This document shows positions 1-29,893 of a stretch of 40,614 bases of DNA, in pieces. The notes below the pieces were generated by a model. That model made no database searches. It saw nothing but the letters and a program-made list of their open reading frames with translations, and was not told where the DNA came from. This stretch comes from Lachnospiraceae bacterium (GTDB lineage Bacteria; Bacillota; Clostridia; Lachnospirales; Lachnospiraceae): positions 1 through 40,614 of the forward strand of contig JAGBEV010000048.1 in assembly GCA_017936785.1 (NCBI GenBank). Direction: 5' to 3'. A program made the position numbers and the translations under genes. How positions within the stretch are numbered: position 1 is the first letter of the stretch; each line of letters opens with the position of its first letter.

Positions 1-67
1 CTAGCTCAGGTGGTAGAGCACTTGACTTTTAATCAAGTTGTCCGGGGTTCGAGTCCCCGGTGGCTCA
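1..67 (+). tRNA. tRNA-Lys (UUU), 5' end cut by the window edge
   Basis: The sequence begins at the last base of the 5' acceptor strand, so about six bases of the gene lie upstream of the window. The D-arm (TAGCTCAGGTGGTAGAGCA) is followed by an anticodon stem CTTGA/TCAAG closing a seven-base loop with anticodon TTT at 28-30. The T-arm is CGGGG-TTCGAGT-CCCCG at 43-59, and the 3' acceptor strand GTGGCTC plus discriminator A ends at 67. CCA is not encoded. A Rho-independent terminator follows, so this is probably the last gene of a tRNA transcript. Confidence 0.96.
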
Positions 68-23323: not shown

Positions 23324-23355
23324 AGCCTGGCAGTCTGATCATGGAATTTGATGCA

Positions 23356-23400
23356 GCTGGGATTACTGGAAAATATTTCAGTAATCCCGGCTTATTTTTT
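23356..23400 (+). terminator. Rho-independent terminator of the sugar operon
   Basis: GCTGGGATTACTG (23356-23368) pairs with CAGTAATCCCGGC (23379-23391), with one G-U pair, and is followed by TTATTTTTT. Confidence 0.92.
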
Positions 23401-23402
23401 AC

Positions 23403-23431
23403 TTGCAATATCGAACGTATGTTTGTATAAT
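23403..23431 (+). promoter_or_regulatory. Sigma-A promoter of the radical SAM gene
   Basis: TTGCAA (23403-23408) and a perfect TATAAT (23426-23431) are 17 bp apart. The predicted transcription start (about 23438) coincides with the ATG of the gene. Confidence 0.78.
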
Positions 23432-23437
23432 GAATAT

Positions 23438-24874
23438 ATGAATGAAATTATCAGTGAAATCACATTAGAAGAAAAACTTCATATATTAGCTGATGCTGCA
23501 AAATATGATGTGGCATGTACATCCAGCGGTGTGGACAGGAAAGGGAAGGAAGGATTTTTGGGCAATACCAGAGCATGCGGTATCTGCCACAGCTTTGCAT
23601 CGGATGGACGGTGTATCTCTTTATTAAAGATATTGATGACCAATCACTGCATTTATGACTGCAAGTATTGTATTAACCGCTGTTCCAATGATGTGGTAAG
23701 GACCACCTTTACGCCGGATGAGATCTGCAGACTGACCATAGAGTTTTATAAGAGAAATTATATTGAAGGTCTGTTTTTAAGCTCAGGAGTGTTAAAAAGC
23801 CCGGCATATACCATGGAAAAAATCTGTGAAACTCTACTGCTTTTACGCAATCAATATAAGTTTAACGGCTATATCCATGTAAAAGCAATTCCGGGTGCGC
23901 CTGATGAACTGCTTGCCACAGCAGGCTATCTTGCTGACAGGATCAGCATCAATCTGGAGCTTCCTACAGCGGAAAGTCTGGAAAAACTGGCTCCCAATAA
24001 AAACTTTAAGACGATCTTAAATCCTATGGGAAAGGTAAGCAGTACCATTGCAGCACACAGACTGGCAATCGGCAAGGATGCCAAAATGGAAAGAAGCAGC
24101 GGCAACCGCTATCTGGAAAACAGCATTTTTACAGGTAATGGAATTGAAGAAAATAAAAGTGAAATCGCACCTTTTACCAAAAAAGAAATGCTGCCGGTTT
24201 CTAAATCAGGAGAAAGTCTCACAAGACCCTTTGCCCCTGCTGGACAAAGCACACAGATGATCATCGGAGCAAGCGGTGAATCGGATTTTAATCTCATACA
24301 GACCACCCAGAAGCTGTATCAATCATATGATCTGAAGAGGGTTTTCTATTCAGCATATGTACCCATTAATGAAGATTCCAATCTTCCTCCAATCGGTACT
24401 GCGCCGCCTTTGTTAAGGGAACACCGCTTATATCAGGCTGACTGGCTGCTGCGTTTTTACGGTTTTCAGGCAGATGAGCTGCTTTCCGAGGAAAGACCGA
24501 ACTTTAATGAGCAGCTTGATCCCAAATGTGACTGGGCATTGCGGCATCTGGACTTATTTCCCGTAGAAGTTCAATCGGCACCTTATGATATGATCCTGCG
24601 CATTCCCGGCATAGGTCCCCGGTCTGCAGGCAGGATTATGAAAGCACGCCGCTACGGAAGGCTGGATTTTGACACTCTTAAGAAAATGGGCGTGGTTTTA
24701 AAAAGAGCACACTATTTCATCACCTGCCAGGGGAAAATGATGTACCATATCCCCATAGAAGAACAATACATTACCAGACAATTAACAGCGACTAACTCCA
24801 GGGAAAACTGGCAGATCGCCCATCAGAATAATTATAAACAGATGTCTCTGTTTGACGATTTTGGAGTAGGGTAA
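23438..24874 (+). CDS. Radical SAM protein with C-terminal HhH, putative DNA modification/repair
   Basis: This 478-residue protein has the radical SAM cluster motif C-x3-C-x2-C at Cys71, Cys75 and Cys78 (CIYDCKYC), preceded by further cysteines at 47, 50 and 58. The C-terminal part has a helix-hairpin-helix DNA-binding motif near residues 387-405 (RIPGIGPRSAGRIMKA). It matches the family annotated as putative DNA modification/repair radical SAM proteins (TIGR03916, from memory), whose members occur with a DUF4130 protein, encoded here at 25006. The frame is open to 23348, but that stretch crosses the preceding terminator and the promoter, so ATG 23438 is the real start. It would then be translated from a leaderless message. 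Reaction and substrate are unknown. Confidence 0.87.
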   Translation: MNEIISEITLEEKLHILADAAKYDVACTSSGVDRKGKEGFLGNTRACGICHSFASDGRCISLLKILMTNHCIYDCKYCINRCSNDVVRTTFTPDEICRLTIEFYKRNYIEGLFLSSGVLKSPAYTMEKICETLLLLRNQYKFNGYIHVKAIPGAPDELLATAGYLADRISINLELPTAESLEKLAPNKNFKTILNPMGKVSSTIAAHRLAIGKDAKMERSSGNRYLENSIFTGNGIEENKSEIAPFTKKEMLPVSKSGESLTRPFAPAGQSTQMIIGASGESDFNLIQTTQKLYQSYDLKRVFYSAYVPINEDSNLPPIGTAPPLLREHRLYQADWLLRFYGFQADELLSEERPNFNEQLDPKCDWALRHLDLFPVEVQSAPYDMILRIPGIGPRSAGRIMKARRYGRLDFDTLKKMGVVLKRAHYFITCQGKMMYHIPIEEQYITRQLTATNSRENWQIAHQNNYKQMSLFDDFGVG

Positions 24875-24893
24875 AGCAATAGATTTGTATGCA

Positions 24894-24967
24894 GGGGAAT
24901 AAGAGAGAAGGTGAAAGGGCAGAAAATATCCATGCCCTCTGCCCTTTCACCTTCTTTCATATTCCCC
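24894..24967. repeat. 74-nt long inverted repeat between the radical SAM and DUF4130 genes
   Basis: A perfect 17-bp stem (24907-24923 with 24938-24954) and an outer perfect 8-bp stem (GGGGAATA with TATTCCCC) are separated by a 5-nt internal loop on each side; the apical loop is 14 nt. No T-run follows, so it is not a standard terminator. It may be a mobile repeat, a processing site or a leader structure controlling the second gene. The rest of the 131-bp gap shows nothing else. Confidence 0.85.
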
Positions 24968-25005
24968 GTCCGCCCCCAATTACTTAAAAGGAATGATAAG
25001 ACAAA

Positions 25006-25776
25006 ATGACAGTTTTTACCTGCAATGATGACTTCGAAAGTATGATGACTTGCATTTATGAGGCATGGGCAAGCAGGCTCGGTCACCAAAATGTCAGATT
25101 GGAAAAGGAACCGATAATTCAACCCAATTTGTTTTGTGAATATGTCCATGTAGATGGAGATGCCCACAAGACAGAAATGGTAGTGCGTTCCATTCAGAAA
25201 AAAATATCTTATGAGGCATACGTTCATATGTTTTATGCCTGTCTTTCCAATGCGACCGATGCCCTGGATACAATATACCGGTTTTTAATACGGGGATTTG
25301 CCTATGGCGGGAAAGTCATGTCCATGCTTTCTGATCAGACAGTGATCCGCATGATGGAGTTAAGAAGAAATGTGGGAAGTGAAGCCCATTATTTTCGGGA
25401 ATTTTCTCGTTTTACATCTATTGGAGGAAATGTATATGTCTGTCATTTTGAACCCAAGAATAATGTACTGATGCCCGTTGCGGAACACTTTAAGGACCGG
25501 ATGCCCTCGGAACATTGGATCATGGTGGACGATAACCGTAGGATAGCAGCCATTCATCCGAAGGACGAGGATTTTTACATCCGTTATCTGACCCCGGAAG
25601 AGGCAGAAACTTTGGCAGAGACAGAGAAGGTAGAAGATGAGTATACCCGGCTTTGGCGGACATTCTTTCATACCATTGGCATTGAACAGCGGAAAAATCC
25701 CGCTTGTCAGAGAAATATGTTTCCCATCTGGATGAGGAAGCATGCTACAGAATTTATGGATGAAAAGAATCAGTAA
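25006..25776 (+). CDS. DUF4130 (TIGR03915-type) partner of the radical SAM protein
   Basis: The 256-residue protein matches the DUF4130 family by its layout: an N-terminal FTCNDDFESMMTCIYEAW, a middle RFLIRGFAYGGKVMSMLSDQTVIRMMELRRNVGSEAHYFREFSRF, and a C-terminal LWRTFFHTIGIEQRKNPACQRNMFPIWMRKHATEF. In other genomes this domain can be fused to a uracil-DNA-glycosylase-like domain (from memory), which suggests a DNA-related role; no such domain is present here. It has no membrane segments. The ribosome site is weak (AAAGGA about 14 bp upstream). The pairing with the upstream radical SAM gene is the main clue to its function. Confidence 0.85.
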   Translation: MTVFTCNDDFESMMTCIYEAWASRLGHQNVRLEKEPIIQPNLFCEYVHVDGDAHKTEMVVRSIQKKISYEAYVHMFYACLSNATDALDTIYRFLIRGFAYGGKVMSMLSDQTVIRMMELRRNVGSEAHYFREFSRFTSIGGNVYVCHFEPKNNVLMPVAEHFKDRMPSEHWIMVDDNRRIAAIHPKDEDFYIRYLTPEEAETLAETEKVEDEYTRLWRTFFHTIGIEQRKNPACQRNMFPIWMRKHATEFMDEKNQ

Positions 25777-25793
25777 AAAATTATGAAAAATAC

Positions 25794-25822
25794 TTGACAT
25801 AACAGGTCGATGGTTATAGACT
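25794..25822 (+). promoter_or_regulatory. Sigma-A promoter of the blaI-blaR1-like operon
   Basis: TTGACA (25794-25799) and TAGACT (25817-25822) are 17 bp apart. The -10 box overlaps the first operator dyad. Confidence 0.75.
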
Positions 25823-25849
25823 GGCAGCAAGAGGTCTATAACTATCGAC
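25806..25849. promoter_or_regulatory. Twin BlaI-type operators
   Basis: Two 16-bp dyads of form GTC[GT]AT-N4-AT[AC]GAC lie at 25806-25821 and 25834-25849, centres 28 bp apart, and are also inverted copies of each other (two mismatches in 16). The first covers the spacer and -10 box, the second the transcription start. This is the layout expected for a dimeric winged-helix repressor that regulates its own operon. Confidence 0.75.
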
Positions 25850-25893
25850 CATTTGTTTTTTGAATTGTAGAAATGGAAAATGGAGAGAGTGCA

Positions 25894-26265
25894 ATGGAAA
25901 AGGCTGTGGAAAATTTAAAACTTTGTGACAGTGATTATCGTTTTATGATGATCGTATGGGAAAATGCGCCTATGAAATCCGGTGAATTGGCAGGATTGTG
26001 TAAAGAAAAGCTGGGCTGGAAGAAATCAACTACCTATACGGTCATTAAAAAGCTTTGTGAAAAAGGGTATATACAAAATGAGAATGCCATAGTTTCCGTT
26101 TTGATCCCCAAAGAAAAAGTACAGGCTGAGGAAACGGAGTATTTTGTTGAGCGTACATTTGAAGGCTCCCTTCCCGGATTTCTGGCAGCATTTTTAGGAG
26201 GAAGAATACTGTCGGAAGAAGAGGCAGAGAAACTGAAAAAGATGATAGATGAGCATAAGGAATAG
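25894..26265 (+). CDS. BlaI/MecI-family transcriptional repressor
   Basis: This 123-residue winged-helix protein has the penicillinase-repressor layout: CDSDYRFMMIVWENAPMKSGEL, a recognition helix in KKSTTYTVIKKLCEKGYI, and a C-terminal dimerisation helix ending LSEEEAEKLKKMIDEHK. In the family, the repressor is cleaved after its BlaR1 partner senses an antibiotic. ATG 25894 fits GGAGAG at 25881-25886; an in-frame ATG at 25873 has no ribosome site. The downstream BlaR1-like gene and the twin operators upstream support the call. No beta-lactamase gene is nearby. Confidence 0.92.
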   Translation: MEKAVENLKLCDSDYRFMMIVWENAPMKSGELAGLCKEKLGWKKSTTYTVIKKLCEKGYIQNENAIVSVLIPKEKVQAEETEYFVERTFEGSLPGFLAAFLGGRILSEEEAEKLKKMIDEHKE

Positions 26266-26336
26266 CAAAAGGATTTCATCATGATCATGAATTTACAAAA
26301 ACGAATCCATCTTTCAATAAAGGGAGGGAGATGCTT

Positions 26337-28835
26337 ATGGAATTGGAAAAAATATTCTTACAACTATTGAATATGAGTATTACAGCAGGTTATGTGATCG
26401 TGGCAGTATTAGCAGTCAGGCTGCTGATACGGAGACTGCCTAAGATTTATTCCTATATTCTTTGGAGCATTGTGGCATTTCGGCTGCTTTGTCCTATTTC
26501 TTTTTCTTCTGCCTTCAGTTTTTTTAATTTAAACCTTTTTGAAAATATAGAAAAAGAACAGGGATTACAGTATGTGGCGGTTGCAGAATATGATACAGCA
26601 AATCAGATTAATCCGGTAATGGTTAATGAGATGGTAATAAATACCAAGGAGACGGCAATGCCGGCGGTGGAAAATACCGGGGCAGGAAATGTGGCAGCAG
26701 GTAATACTGCAGAGGGTATAAAGATCATGGGTATTAAAGAAATGATACCTCAAATTGCTGCAATAATTTGGATTTTAGGGATAGGGTTTCTTTTGATTTA
26801 TACCATAATTGCCCTACTAAAGATAAGGAAGCAGACAGCCACAGCAGTATTACTATATGAAAACATCTATGAATGTGAAGGAATTCATTCCCCTTTTGTA
26901 TATGGCATTCTTCGCCCCAGGATCTATATCCCTTTTCGTTTACAGGATGAAGAACGGGAATATATTTTAGGACATGAAAAGCATCACGTTCAAAGAAAAG
27001 ACTACCTCATAAAAGCAGCAGCCTATTTGATCGCAGTGGTATATTGGTTTTCGCCTCTTGTGTGGCTTTCCTATTATCTGATGTGTCAGGATATGGAAAT
27101 GAGCTGTGATGAAAAGGTGATCGGCGGGATGGGCAAAGAAGTGAAGCAGAATTATAGCAGGCTGTTATTATCTTTTGCTACAGGAAGAAGAAAACTGGCA
27201 GGTCCTTTGTATTTTGGAGAAAGTAATGTGGGAAAAAGAATTAAAAATATTCTGAAATACAAAAAGGCAGGGATAGCTGCGGCTTCCCTGGGTGTTGTTT
27301 TGCTGATAGTATTGTGTCTTATATTTGCCACGGATGGAAGGAGTAAGAACAGCATCAGAGTAACCATGACCGATGAAGCTCCGGTTTTATCAAGTACCAT
27401 TCCCATGGAAGAGTCTGTCCGGCATGAATATACTTTAGAGGATAATATAAAAAGCTATCTTGTTTACGGGGATATTTATAGGGAAGGGGTTTATTTGGGC
27501 AGGAAAATCATCGCCTGTCATGATGTATCCAATTATCATGAGGATTTTGCACCTATGACCAGTATCAATATTACGTCCCAGGGTGAAGAAACGGAAGTAA
27601 TGTTTATGTACAATACGGATATGCTCTCCCGTACGGAATCATTTTATATTCCGGAGAAAGCAACGATGTGGGCGGCAGATGTATTGTGGGATGATGGGGA
27701 GAAACGGGAGATCGTTCCTGAAAAGCCTTATATTTATGAAGCTAAATATATAGGAGGAAATGATACAGAGCATTTGGAATGCTTCCGGTGTGAAAATCTC
27801 AATGAGGCAAGTGCTGAAGAATGGGATAACTGTATAAATCAGAATTGTACCACAATTTTGCTTAGTTTTGTCTTTTCTGAAAAGTTGGAGCAGGACTTGT
27901 TAAAAGAATATAAAAGTGATAATGAAGCATATTTAATGGAAGGGATAGAAGAGGAAGCTTCATTGCAGCAAGAAAAAGCAGCTAATAAAGAAAATAGCAG
28001 AGAAGATAATGGGCAGCCGGAATTGAGCTTAACGCAGGTCATGGACCGCGTAGTAGAGGAATGCTGGGATACAGAAGATATAGATGATTTTAATATTGTT
28101 TTGAATGAGCTGAAAAATGAAGAGAAAAATTTGGAAATAAATGGATATACAAGAGACAGGATGGTTCTTCTTGCCCGGTCAGAGGATGGCAAGGTAACTG
28201 CCTATGGAATTATCAGCCCCGAATATGGTAGTAAGGGTATCGTCATGGACTTTGAAAATGAAGGAGACAGCCATAATCATAATTATTTCGAATGGGATTG
28301 GGACCCTTATCGTTTCAGACCATGGATTGAAAAAGCAGATCTTGACAGTGACGGACGAGACGAAGTTCTATTCTTTTTAAATGGTGCTGTAAGCGAGGAT
28401 ACTTATCAGGAACGGCTGATTGTTTTTGAAACCTATGAGACCTGCCATATGGAACCCTATGAATTGATGCTTGATCATATGGAGCCGGATATTGAGAGAT
28501 TATTAAAGACAGAGATCCGGAAAGACAGCCGTACGGTGGATGTTATAGATGGGGAAACAGGAAACACACTGATATCGGGAATATCCTATGATGCAGGCAC
28601 AGAGGTGGAGTTTTCAAAAATGGATTATACCTCGAATATTAGGTTTTTGTATGATAAAAACAGTCCAAGGCTTTTTCTTCGGGTCAGACCGGGAATAGTT
28701 GCAAATAACAGCGGGAAAATAATTTTTGCGGAAGAGGAGATAGCATTTTTGATTGATTATTCTGAAGATATGGAAGGCGGTCATTTTACCCTGACAAATC
28801 CGTCACTGTATCAGGAAAGTGCATATTATGAATAA
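26337..28835 (+). CDS. BlaR1-like M56 metallopeptidase with large unidentified sensor domain
   Basis: The 832-residue membrane protein has an M56 peptidase N-terminal half: two helices (about 12-56), a third (about 135-160), the zinc site HEKHH (His213, Glu214, His217) followed by MEMSCDEKVIG, and a fourth helix near 308-331. The remaining 500 residues would be extracellular. They lack the SxxK/SxN/KTG penicillin-binding motifs of true BlaR1; instead they are acidic, with a DLDSDGRDEV calcium-loop-like motif near 670. The ligand is therefore unknown and probably not a beta-lactam. ATG 26337 is 9 bp after AGGGAGG; ATG 26331 is too close. It follows the BlaI-like gene by 71 bp. Confidence 0.85.
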   Translation: MELEKIFLQLLNMSITAGYVIVAVLAVRLLIRRLPKIYSYILWSIVAFRLLCPISFSSAFSFFNLNLFENIEKEQGLQYVAVAEYDTANQINPVMVNEMVINTKETAMPAVENTGAGNVAAGNTAEGIKIMGIKEMIPQIAAIIWILGIGFLLIYTIIALLKIRKQTATAVLLYENIYECEGIHSPFVYGILRPRIYIPFRLQDEEREYILGHEKHHVQRKDYLIKAAAYLIAVVYWFSPLVWLSYYLMCQDMEMSCDEKVIGGMGKEVKQNYSRLLLSFATGRRKLAGPLYFGESNVGKRIKNILKYKKAGIAAASLGVVLLIVLCLIFATDGRSKNSIRVTMTDEAPVLSSTIPMEESVRHEYTLEDNIKSYLVYGDIYREGVYLGRKIIACHDVSNYHEDFAPMTSINITSQGEETEVMFMYNTDMLSRTESFYIPEKATMWAADVLWDDGEKREIVPEKPYIYEAKYIGGNDTEHLECFRCENLNEASAEEWDNCINQNCTTILLSFVFSEKLEQDLLKEYKSDNEAYLMEGIEEEASLQQEKAANKENSREDNGQPELSLTQVMDRVVEECWDTEDIDDFNIVLNELKNEEKNLEINGYTRDRMVLLARSEDGKVTAYGIISPEYGSKGIVMDFENEGDSHNHNYFEWDWDPYRFRPWIEKADLDSDGRDEVLFFLNGAVSEDTYQERLIVFETYETCHMEPYELMLDHMEPDIERLLKTEIRKDSRTVDVIDGETGNTLISGISYDAGTEVEFSKMDYTSNIRFLYDKNSPRLFLRVRPGIVANNSGKIIFAEEEIAFLIDYSEDMEGGHFTLTNPSLYQESAYYE

Positions 28836-29431: not shown

Positions 29432-29893
29432 TCATTTATTTTTTCGACTCTCTTCTAACATAGAGTCAATGTACCCCCTGTCCCACAGCAGAATTTTTAA
29501 TTTCTTTGCAGCTTCCACTGCCGGAGCTGTAAAATACTGGTTGGTCATGACTGCTCCCACCATGCGGTCATAGTAATCCCTGCCCGCATAGGCTTCCTGA
29601 ATTGCTTTTACCCCAACCGGTTCGCTGTAGCGTTTGCACTGGACAGCATAAGTAACGCCTTCTTTTTGCGCCAGAATATCTATGCCGTAATCGCCGCTTG
29701 CTTTTGTTATTTCGACCTCATCAAAACCTCTTTCAGCCAGAAGGGCGGCACAGAATTCTTCAAAATCTGTACCCTCCATCTCATCCATTTCTGACAGCTT
29801 ATAATTTCTGCGGTAATGCTTGCCCAGAATAAATGTGAGGATCAAGGCAGCTAAAAATAATATGCAGAATCCTAAAATATAGTAGATTTCCAT
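29432..29893 (-). CDS. Membrane-anchored Mrr-like restriction endonuclease-fold protein
   Basis: The 153-residue protein has one N-terminal membrane helix (residues 5-24) followed by an Mrr_cat-type PD-(D/E)xK domain: GTDFEEFCAALLAERGF (Glu45/Glu46), ASGDYGIDILAQ (Asp72) and YAVQCKRY (Gln85-x-Lys87), then GAVMTNQYFTAPAVEAAKKL. In this family the nuclease cleaves foreign or modified DNA; many small membrane-tethered members are uncharacterised. All catalytic positions are intact. It is a single gene, read leftwards from a promoter that shares its -35 region with the AEC transporter promoter, and it converges on spmB. Confidence 0.85.
   Translation of the reverse strand: MEIYYILGFCILFLAALILTFILGKHYRRNYKLSEMDEMEGTDFEEFCAALLAERGFDEVEITKASGDYGIDILAQKEGVTYAVQCKRYSEPVGVKAIQEAYAGRDYYDRMVGAVMTNQYFTAPAVEAAKKLKILLWDRGYIDSMLEESRKNK

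What the first reader, a model, noticed from the sequence alone, without database searches (positions are those of the whole stretch)
23438..25776. Radical SAM/HhH protein with DUF4130 partner: an uncharacterised DNA-directed system
Seen: an intact CX3CX2C motif, extra cysteines, a DNA-binding helix-hairpin-helix at the C-terminus, and the DUF4130 protein as next gene. Known (from memory): these families co-occur and DUF4130 can be fused to a uracil-DNA-glycosylase-like domain. Inference: a radical-based DNA base repair or modification enzyme whose partner recognises or processes the lesion. I know of no experimental description of the reaction. This is my best candidate for an undescribed biochemical system in the window.
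Basis: partly seen in the sequence, partly recalled or inferred. Interest (0 to 1): 0.78.

Follow-up and report, generated by a model that had tools for sequence, protein, structure and literature searches.

The report
SOS-controlled radical SAM DNA-repair pair
Two neighbouring genes encode a radical enzyme and a partner that almost always accompanies it; they look like a DNA-damage-induced repair machine that docks on the replication clamp, but its chemistry is still unknown.

Summary
Window 23438-24874 encodes a radical SAM/HhH protein (TIGR03916, 692 bits) and 25006-25776 its DUF4130 partner (TIGR03915, 259 bits): a catalogued but uncharacterised pair. Four further features emerged. (1) SOS control: a LexA-type box lies between -35 and -10; 30 of 38 related operons have one, and 8 of 8 alpha- and 2 of 2 betaproteobacterial loci examined carry other, lineage-type LexA motifs. 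(2) A C-terminal sliding-clamp-binding motif, QMSLF here, strict form in 107 of 125 relatives. (3) Three near-invariant cysteines before the radical SAM cluster, suggesting an auxiliary cluster. (4) DUF4130 is predicted confidently to resemble RecJ/Cdc45/DHH folds, without sequence support. Best reading: an SOS-induced, clamp-tethered radical enzyme acting on damaged DNA at stalled forks, DUF4130 holding the strand. Lesion and reaction are inferred, not shown.

The parts
23355..23392 (+). Terminator-like hairpin that separates the pair from the upstream GH43 gene
   Evidence: 17-pair stem then T-rich tail
23403..23431 (+). Promoter-like site, TTGCAA-17-TATAAT
   Evidence: 10 of 12 matches; promoter-like sites in the stretch are no commoner than in shuffles (7 against 6.5)
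23412..23425 (+). LexA/SOS-type box CGAACGTATGTTTG, lying in the -35/-10 spacer
   Evidence: Sequence; CGAACNNNNGTTYG is found at 3 places in this 3.4-Mb genome, which is chance level genome-wide (reversed control 3 and 3); the evidence is the conserved position: box before 30 of 38 related operons
23438..24874 (+). Radical SAM/HhH protein, 478 aa (TIGR03916)
   Evidence: 692.5 bits; the ATG lies 6 nt after the -10 hexamer, so the mRNA may be leaderless
23516..23614 (+). Cysteine triad C27, C50 (followed by H51), C59: predicted auxiliary metal/Fe-S site
   Evidence: 123, 124, 123 of 125 conserved; all three in 13 of 14 divergent-clade members and 10 of 10 proteobacterial copies
23648..23671 (+). 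Radical SAM motif C71-x3-C75-x2-C78
   Evidence: 125 of 125
24578..24652 (+). Helix-hairpin-helix (IPGIGPRSAGRI)
   Evidence: HHH_3 in 54 of 55 relatives, the window protein itself below threshold; phmmer to 2duy
24839..24853 (+). C-terminal clamp-binding motif QMSLF
   Evidence: strict motif in the last 60 aa of 107 of 125 relatives against 0.33 expected by shuffling; consensus QL[S/D]LF in PMC12309361 (passages)
24894..24967 (.). Large intergenic hairpin (30-nt arms, 93% complementary) between the two genes
   Evidence: its 16-nt arm core has no other exact copy in the genome; role not determined
25006..25776 (+). DUF4130 partner, 256 aa (TIGR03915); predicted DHH/RecJ/Cdc45-like fold

Best explanation
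The pair is an SOS-induced DNA repair (lesion-processing) enzyme that works at the replication fork. Shown by sequence: a LexA-type operator in the promoter, the radical SAM motif, an HhH, a C-terminal clamp-binding-type peptide on a variable linker, a near-invariant extra cysteine triad, a near-obligate DUF4130 partner. Inferred steps: LexA cleavage after damage derepresses the genes; the QMSLF tail docks the radical SAM protein on the DnaN clamp at a stalled or lesion-bearing primer-template; the HhH and DUF4130, taken as a catalytically degenerate RecJ/Cdc45/DHH-like subunit, hold the single-stranded or flipped-out damaged strand; the [4Fe-4S] cluster cleaves SAM and the 5'-deoxyadenosyl radical abstracts H from the damaged nucleotide, which is reversed or converted to a bypassable or excisable form, with C27/C50/C59 holding a second cluster. 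In Proteobacteria a fused cross-linking UdgX module additionally captures uracil/AP sites for the same machine. Confidence for an SOS-controlled, clamp-docked DNA enzyme about 0.65; for direct radical repair of a base or sugar lesion specifically about 0.35.
For: LexA box inside the -35/-10 spacer. Boxes within 150 bp: 30 of 38 related operons, against 6 of 305 other ATG ORFs of 120 aa or more in the same loci (antisense ORFs included, window left out) and 0.45 of 38 by shuffling; 63 of 80 further loci, shuffle 0.93, and 0 of 78 DUF4130 starts; within 200 bp 13 of 14 divergent-clade operons. lexA genes of the relatives carry the same motif within 300 bp in 29 of 29 scanned (30 loci fetched of 47 genomes with lexA; one had no upstream DNA to scan). 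8 of 8 alphaproteobacterial loci have GAAC-N7-GAAC (shuffle 0.04) and 2 of 2 betaproteobacterial loci CTG-N10-CAG. Box presence goes with LexA presence, 27 of 31 against 3 of 7 genomes, Fisher p 0.025. Clamp motif in 107 of 125 (strict) and 116 of 125 (looser); where strict, 0 to 33 residues (median 16) follow it. HhH 54 of 55. Partner present even when unlinked: G149 (1.57 Mb apart on one contig), G047, G053, G110, G345. DUF4130 model: by my reading (some superfamily assignments recalled) 48 of the 50 VIA rows are DHH/DHHA1 proteins, two are sex-pheromone precursors; of the first 16 viral matches 9 are named exopolyphosphatase, phosphohydrolase, RecJ, NrnB or DHH. A large helicase-type gene follows in 25 of 125 loci, 24 on the same strand; the one member tested is DinG/XPD-like.
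Confidence: 0.6

Rival explanations
1. Uracil/abasic-site system: the radical SAM and DUF4130 serve uracil excision or AP-site protection, the glycosylase being supplied in trans where it is not fused.
For: 10 of 10 fused proteins examined keep the UdgX motif A GEQPG and a [KR]RR[LIM]H loop; PMC8565304 reads the operon as UDG-based base excision repair (passages); 203 of 299 phylum genomes have a sub-cut-off, family-4-like match that could act in trans.
Against: The window genome has no match to the UdgX model at E<=0.001, and 0 of 299 phylum genomes pass its cut-off although 64 have both genes. On plasmids the UDG part also occurs without a DUF4130 match: 26 of the 40 rows shown of 430 records cover only the UDG part. 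Ung-type family 1 was not searched.
Confidence: 0.15
2. Partner-activating radical SAM: the enzyme installs a modification or radical on DUF4130, which is the real DNA enzyme.
For: Near one-to-one pairing even when unlinked; R135, F162, R165, R229, E249 of DUF4130 are invariant in 63 of 63 and in the five-sequence cross-phylum alignment. Three radical SAM copies with a defective cysteine triad have no DUF4130 in the DNA held around them.
Against: HhH and clamp motif sit on the radical SAM protein; no Gly, Cys or Tyr is invariant in the DUF4130 alignment.
Confidence: 0.15
3. SplB-type photoproduct lyase: repairs spore photoproduct or another UV dimer, as the 2013 paper's label implies.
For: Label in PMC3765255 (passages); radical SAM DNA repair has this one precedent (recalled).
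Against: Profile search of PDB chains at E<=1 lists 22 sequences, among them HydG, HydE and HhH proteins, but no spore photoproduct lyase; the VIA rows shown are headed by lipoyl synthase and HydE, which is inconclusive; PMC8565304 lists SplB (COG1533) apart from COG4277 (passages). A clamp motif and a partner are not recalled for SplB.
Confidence: 0.12
4. DNA hypermodification or anti-phage defence rather than repair.
For: The NCBIfam name says modification/repair; copies lie on plasmids (158 records).
Against: No PADLOC match for either protein at E<=0.001; damage-inducible control argues against a constitutive mark; 142 of the 158 plasmid records are typed non-mobilizable.
Confidence: 0.06

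Closest known systems
TIGR03916/TIGR03915 pair (rSAM_link_UDG with SAM_7_link_chp/DUF4130); COG4277 by recall
   Same: Both proteins score far above the curated cut-offs; adjacent, same strand
   Different: Nothing at family level; this genome has no match to the UdgX model
DUF4130-UdgX fusion operons of Alpha/Betaproteobacteria
   Same: Same radical SAM and DUF4130 domains, cysteine triad in 10 of 10, SOS-type box in 10 of 10, clamp-like C-terminus in 9 of 10
   Different: Partner carries a UdgX domain with the cross-linking loop
Spore photoproduct lyase (SplB)
   Same: Radical SAM enzyme that acts on DNA (recalled); SOS-linked in Bacteroidetes (passages)
   Different: No SPL chain found by the profile search; here HhH, clamp motif, cysteine triad and partner
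Lipoyl synthase / HydE (nearest solved folds)
   Different: Here C-x22-C-x8-C with HhH and clamp tail; LipA spacing differs (recalled)
RecJ/Cdc45/NrnA (DHH superfamily)
   Same: Predicted fold of DUF4130
   Different: No DHH motif, no sequence relationship detected

Membership tests
TIGR03916 + TIGR03915 pair | Scores above the curated cut-offs | tested here: met
   692.5 vs 343.5 and 259 vs 112.25 bits
TIGR03916 + TIGR03915 pair | Both genes present together | tested here: met
   Adjacent in window; identical 38-genome sets of 61
Radical SAM superfamily | CX3CX2C motif | tested here: met
   C71, C75, C78; 125 of 125 relatives
Radical SAM superfamily | Radical SAM barrel fold | tested here: met
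Radical SAM superfamily | SAM cleavage, Fe-S content | not testable with these tools
   needs anaerobic biochemistry
SOS (LexA) regulon | LexA-type operator in the promoter | tested here: met
   23412-23425; 30 of 38 relatives
SOS (LexA) regulon | LexA binding and damage induction | not testable with these tools
   needs gel shift or RT-qPCR
Sliding-clamp clients | QL[S/D]LF-type peptide | tested here: met
   QMSLF at 24839-24853; 107 of 125 strict
Sliding-clamp clients | Measured DnaN binding | not testable with these tools
   needs fluorescence polarization or crystallography
UdgX | UDG domain with GEQPG and KRR-H loop in the system | tested here: not met
   No TIGR03914 match in the window genome at E<=0.001
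SplB spore photoproduct lyase | Specific similarity beyond the radical SAM core | tested here: inconclusive
   No SPL chain at E<=1, none in the VIA rows shown; the SplB model asked for is not in the library
DHH superfamily (DUF4130) | DHH/DHHA1 fold | tested here: inconclusive
DHH superfamily (DUF4130) | Sequence relationship and DHH metal motifs | tested here: not met
   hhalign E 0.69 and 0.87; acidic columns over 80% are E11, E19, E126, D164, E169, D175, E249

The most novel reading that the evidence does not exclude
A new class of DNA repair: a radical SAM enzyme with two iron-sulphur clusters, induced by SOS and tethered to the sliding clamp, reverses or rewrites replication-blocking lesions at the fork with a RecJ/Cdc45-like partner, and in some bacteria is aimed at uracil by a covalently self-trapping UdgX module, which would give UdgX its missing cellular role.
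Probability: 0.3. Interest if true: 0.92.

Novelty: new variant of a known kind. Interest (0 to 1): 0.62.

Why it matters
Spore photoproduct lyase is, as far as I recall, the only established radical SAM enzyme that repairs DNA. A second, widespread one (65 of 299 genomes sampled from the phylum pass the cut-off), damage-induced and clamp-docked, would add a fork-coupled mode of direct repair and a physiological setting for UdgX, whose precise role PMC10359453 says remains largely unknown (passages). The LexA box, the clamp motif and the cysteine triad make the question directly testable.

Tried and rejected
Tried and set aside: (a) Phage origin: 10 'phage' records match; of these I looked at the gene content of two, and both carry housekeeping genes (L103 by annotation glyS, glyQ, aroE; L216 a purL-like and other genes by my reading of its ORFs), so they look chromosomal; a third (L215) was fetched and only scanned for boxes. 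Viral contigs gave 2 relatives from 58 candidate stretches. (b) Defence: no PADLOC match for either protein, no PHROGs match for the radical SAM protein; DUF4130 hits phrog_6306 of unknown function. (c) DHH homology by sequence: none; none among the 25 of 34 Pfam families shown for the 63 DUF4130 members. (d) Solved relative of DUF4130: none at E<=10. (e) Cysteine-partner covariation: L102 lacks all three cysteines, L076 lacks C27 and C59, L304 lacks C50, and a DUF4130 profile finds no partner in the DNA held around any of the three (its positive controls L101 and L104 are in the profile). It equally finds none around L057 and L058, whose genomes have the partner on another contig, nor in L185, so three cases are too few for a claim. 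(f) SplB as a reference family: model not in the library.

Errors of mine: searches scanned minus-strand loci on the wrong side and undercounted boxes; replace them. The lexA count (26 of 27) misplaced one start and left out three short loci; one search gives 29 of 29. The script failed after printing its main counts; reran the failed part. Rows dropped: of 130 loci 127 had the radical SAM; L077 (truncated) and L186 (cut by the contig end) were dropped to give 125; the 125 leaves out L006 and L186 instead. In one search L076 and L077 were left out. Of 65 sequences selected, 55 went into the radical SAM alignment and 63 into the DUF4130 one.

Full report
What is there. The best-matching named contigs for the radical SAM protein are Lachnospiraceae (89% identity, L121). 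The radical SAM gene 23438-24874 and the DUF4130 gene 25006-25776 score 692.5 bits for TIGR03916 and 259 bits for TIGR03915. They follow GH5 and GH43 genes and precede a BlaI/BlaR1-like pair, and a terminator-like hairpin at 23355-23392 sets them off from the GH43 gene. Their own promoter-like site, TTGCAA-17-TATAAT at 23403-23431, has the palindrome CGAACGTATGTTTG in its spacer.

The pair is near-obligate. Of 61 relatives exactly 38 genomes pass the cut-off for each family, and they are the same 38. Of 299 genomes of the phylum 65 pass for the radical SAM and 64 of these have DUF4130 at E<=0.001; the exception, G101, is 75% complete and its gene ends 78 bases from a contig end, on the side where the partner would lie. 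Of 68 genomes with DUF4130, four have no radical SAM over the cut-off, and three of the four have a partial one. In G047, G053, G110 and G345 the two lie on different contigs, and in G149 they are about 1.57 Mb apart on one contig. Linkage alone does not explain the co-occurrence.

SOS control. With loci correctly oriented, 30 of 38 related operons have RAAC-N4-GTTY within 150 bp of the start, against 6 of 305 other ORF starts in the same loci and 0.45 of 38 by shuffling. lexA genes of the relatives have the motif within 300 bp in 29 of 29 scanned. In 80 further loci the count is 63, shuffle 0.93, and 0 of 78 for DUF4130 starts. In a divergent clade (about 337-430 bits) it is 13 of 14 within 200 bp. 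Proteobacterial loci carry other motifs: GAAC-N7-GAAC in 8 of 8 alpha (shuffle 0.04), CTG-N10-CAG in 2 of 2 beta (that these are the LexA motifs of those lineages is recalled). Genomes without a LexA match over the cut-off tend to lack the box (3 of 7 have it, against 27 of 31; p 0.025); in one of them, G047, an XRE-S24 LexA-like repressor gene stands directly upstream of the radical SAM gene. Against novelty of this point: PMC8565304 has SOS control of the UDG-type operon in Bacteroidetes and cites it for two other groups (passages); PMC7739468 lists 'a radical SAM protein' in the core SOS regulon of Gram-positive bacteria (passages) and PMC9380542 a radical SAM protein in the Streptomyces venezuelae LexA regulon (passage). 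Whether these last two are this family or SplB I could not tell.

Clamp motif. The protein ends in QMSLFDDFGVG. Q[LMVI][SNDT][LMI][FW] occurs in the last 60 residues of 107 of 125 relatives, against 0.33 expected, with one occurrence elsewhere in all the proteins. A looser form gives 116 of 125, and some misses read QLTLGI, QMSLPL, QLSVF. Its distance from the HhH varies (50-83 residues) and 0-33 residues follow, as for a docking peptide on a tether. Of ten proteobacterial copies three end in QLSLF, six in QLxLL or QLxLI, and one, L207, has none. PMC12309361 gives the consensus QL[S/D]LF, more generally QxxLF, and the PolC motif QLSLF (passages). A search for radical SAM with sliding clamp and SOS listed two papers that look unrelated (listing only).

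UdgX. Ten of ten fusion proteins examined keep GEQPG and a [KR]RR[LIM]H loop, so the module should cross-link itself to abasic DNA as PMC10359453 describes for M. smegmatis UdgX (passages). The window genome has no match to this model, and 0 of 299 phylum genomes pass its cut-off. The core machine is thus radical SAM + DUF4130; UdgX is an add-on.

Mechanism. Committed reading: LexA derepression, clamp docking, strand holding by HhH and DUF4130, radical attack on a damaged nucleotide. The first two rest on sequence features, the third on the HhH and a fold prediction, the last on the superfamily. A large gene of one cluster follows in 25 of 125 loci (24 on the same strand), some loci being too short to show it; the one member tested is a DinG/XPD-like helicase, which fits a fork-related role.

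Verdict.

Noticed in passing
window 25805-25850: 17-nt inverted repeat (94% complementary, 12-nt spacer) overlapping a promoter-like site before a BlaI/BlaR1-like pair (25873-28835): possibly that repressor's operator.
   Followed up: partly
window 24894-24967: Large hairpin with 30-nt arms between the two genes of the pair; its arm core has no other exact copy in the genome; attenuator, processing site or terminator unknown.
   Followed up: partly
window 23426-23438: The -10 hexamer ends 6 nt before the ATG, so the radical SAM mRNA may be leaderless; three same-genus loci (L084, L085, L086) have the box at the same -25 spacing.
   Followed up: no
window 29432-29893: Mrr-type restriction endonuclease domain protein (PF04471) with a hydrophobic N-terminus, weakly like the C-terminus of Zorya ZorD.
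   Followed up: no
L057 7273-7869: XRE-S24 (LexA-like) repressor gene immediately upstream of the radical SAM gene in a genome (G047, 77% complete) with no LexA match over the cut-off.
   Followed up: partly
L216, L103: Records labelled phage (Bacteriophage sp. MT835514, Acinetobacter phage MD-2021a) carry housekeeping genes and look chromosomal.
   Followed up: partly
L076 (G054:C5:33865-34860), L102, L304: Divergent radical SAM/HhH copies with a wholly or partly missing cysteine triad and no DUF4130 in the DNA held around them.
   Followed up: partly
window 1-67: A tRNA cut off by the window's left end.
   Followed up: no
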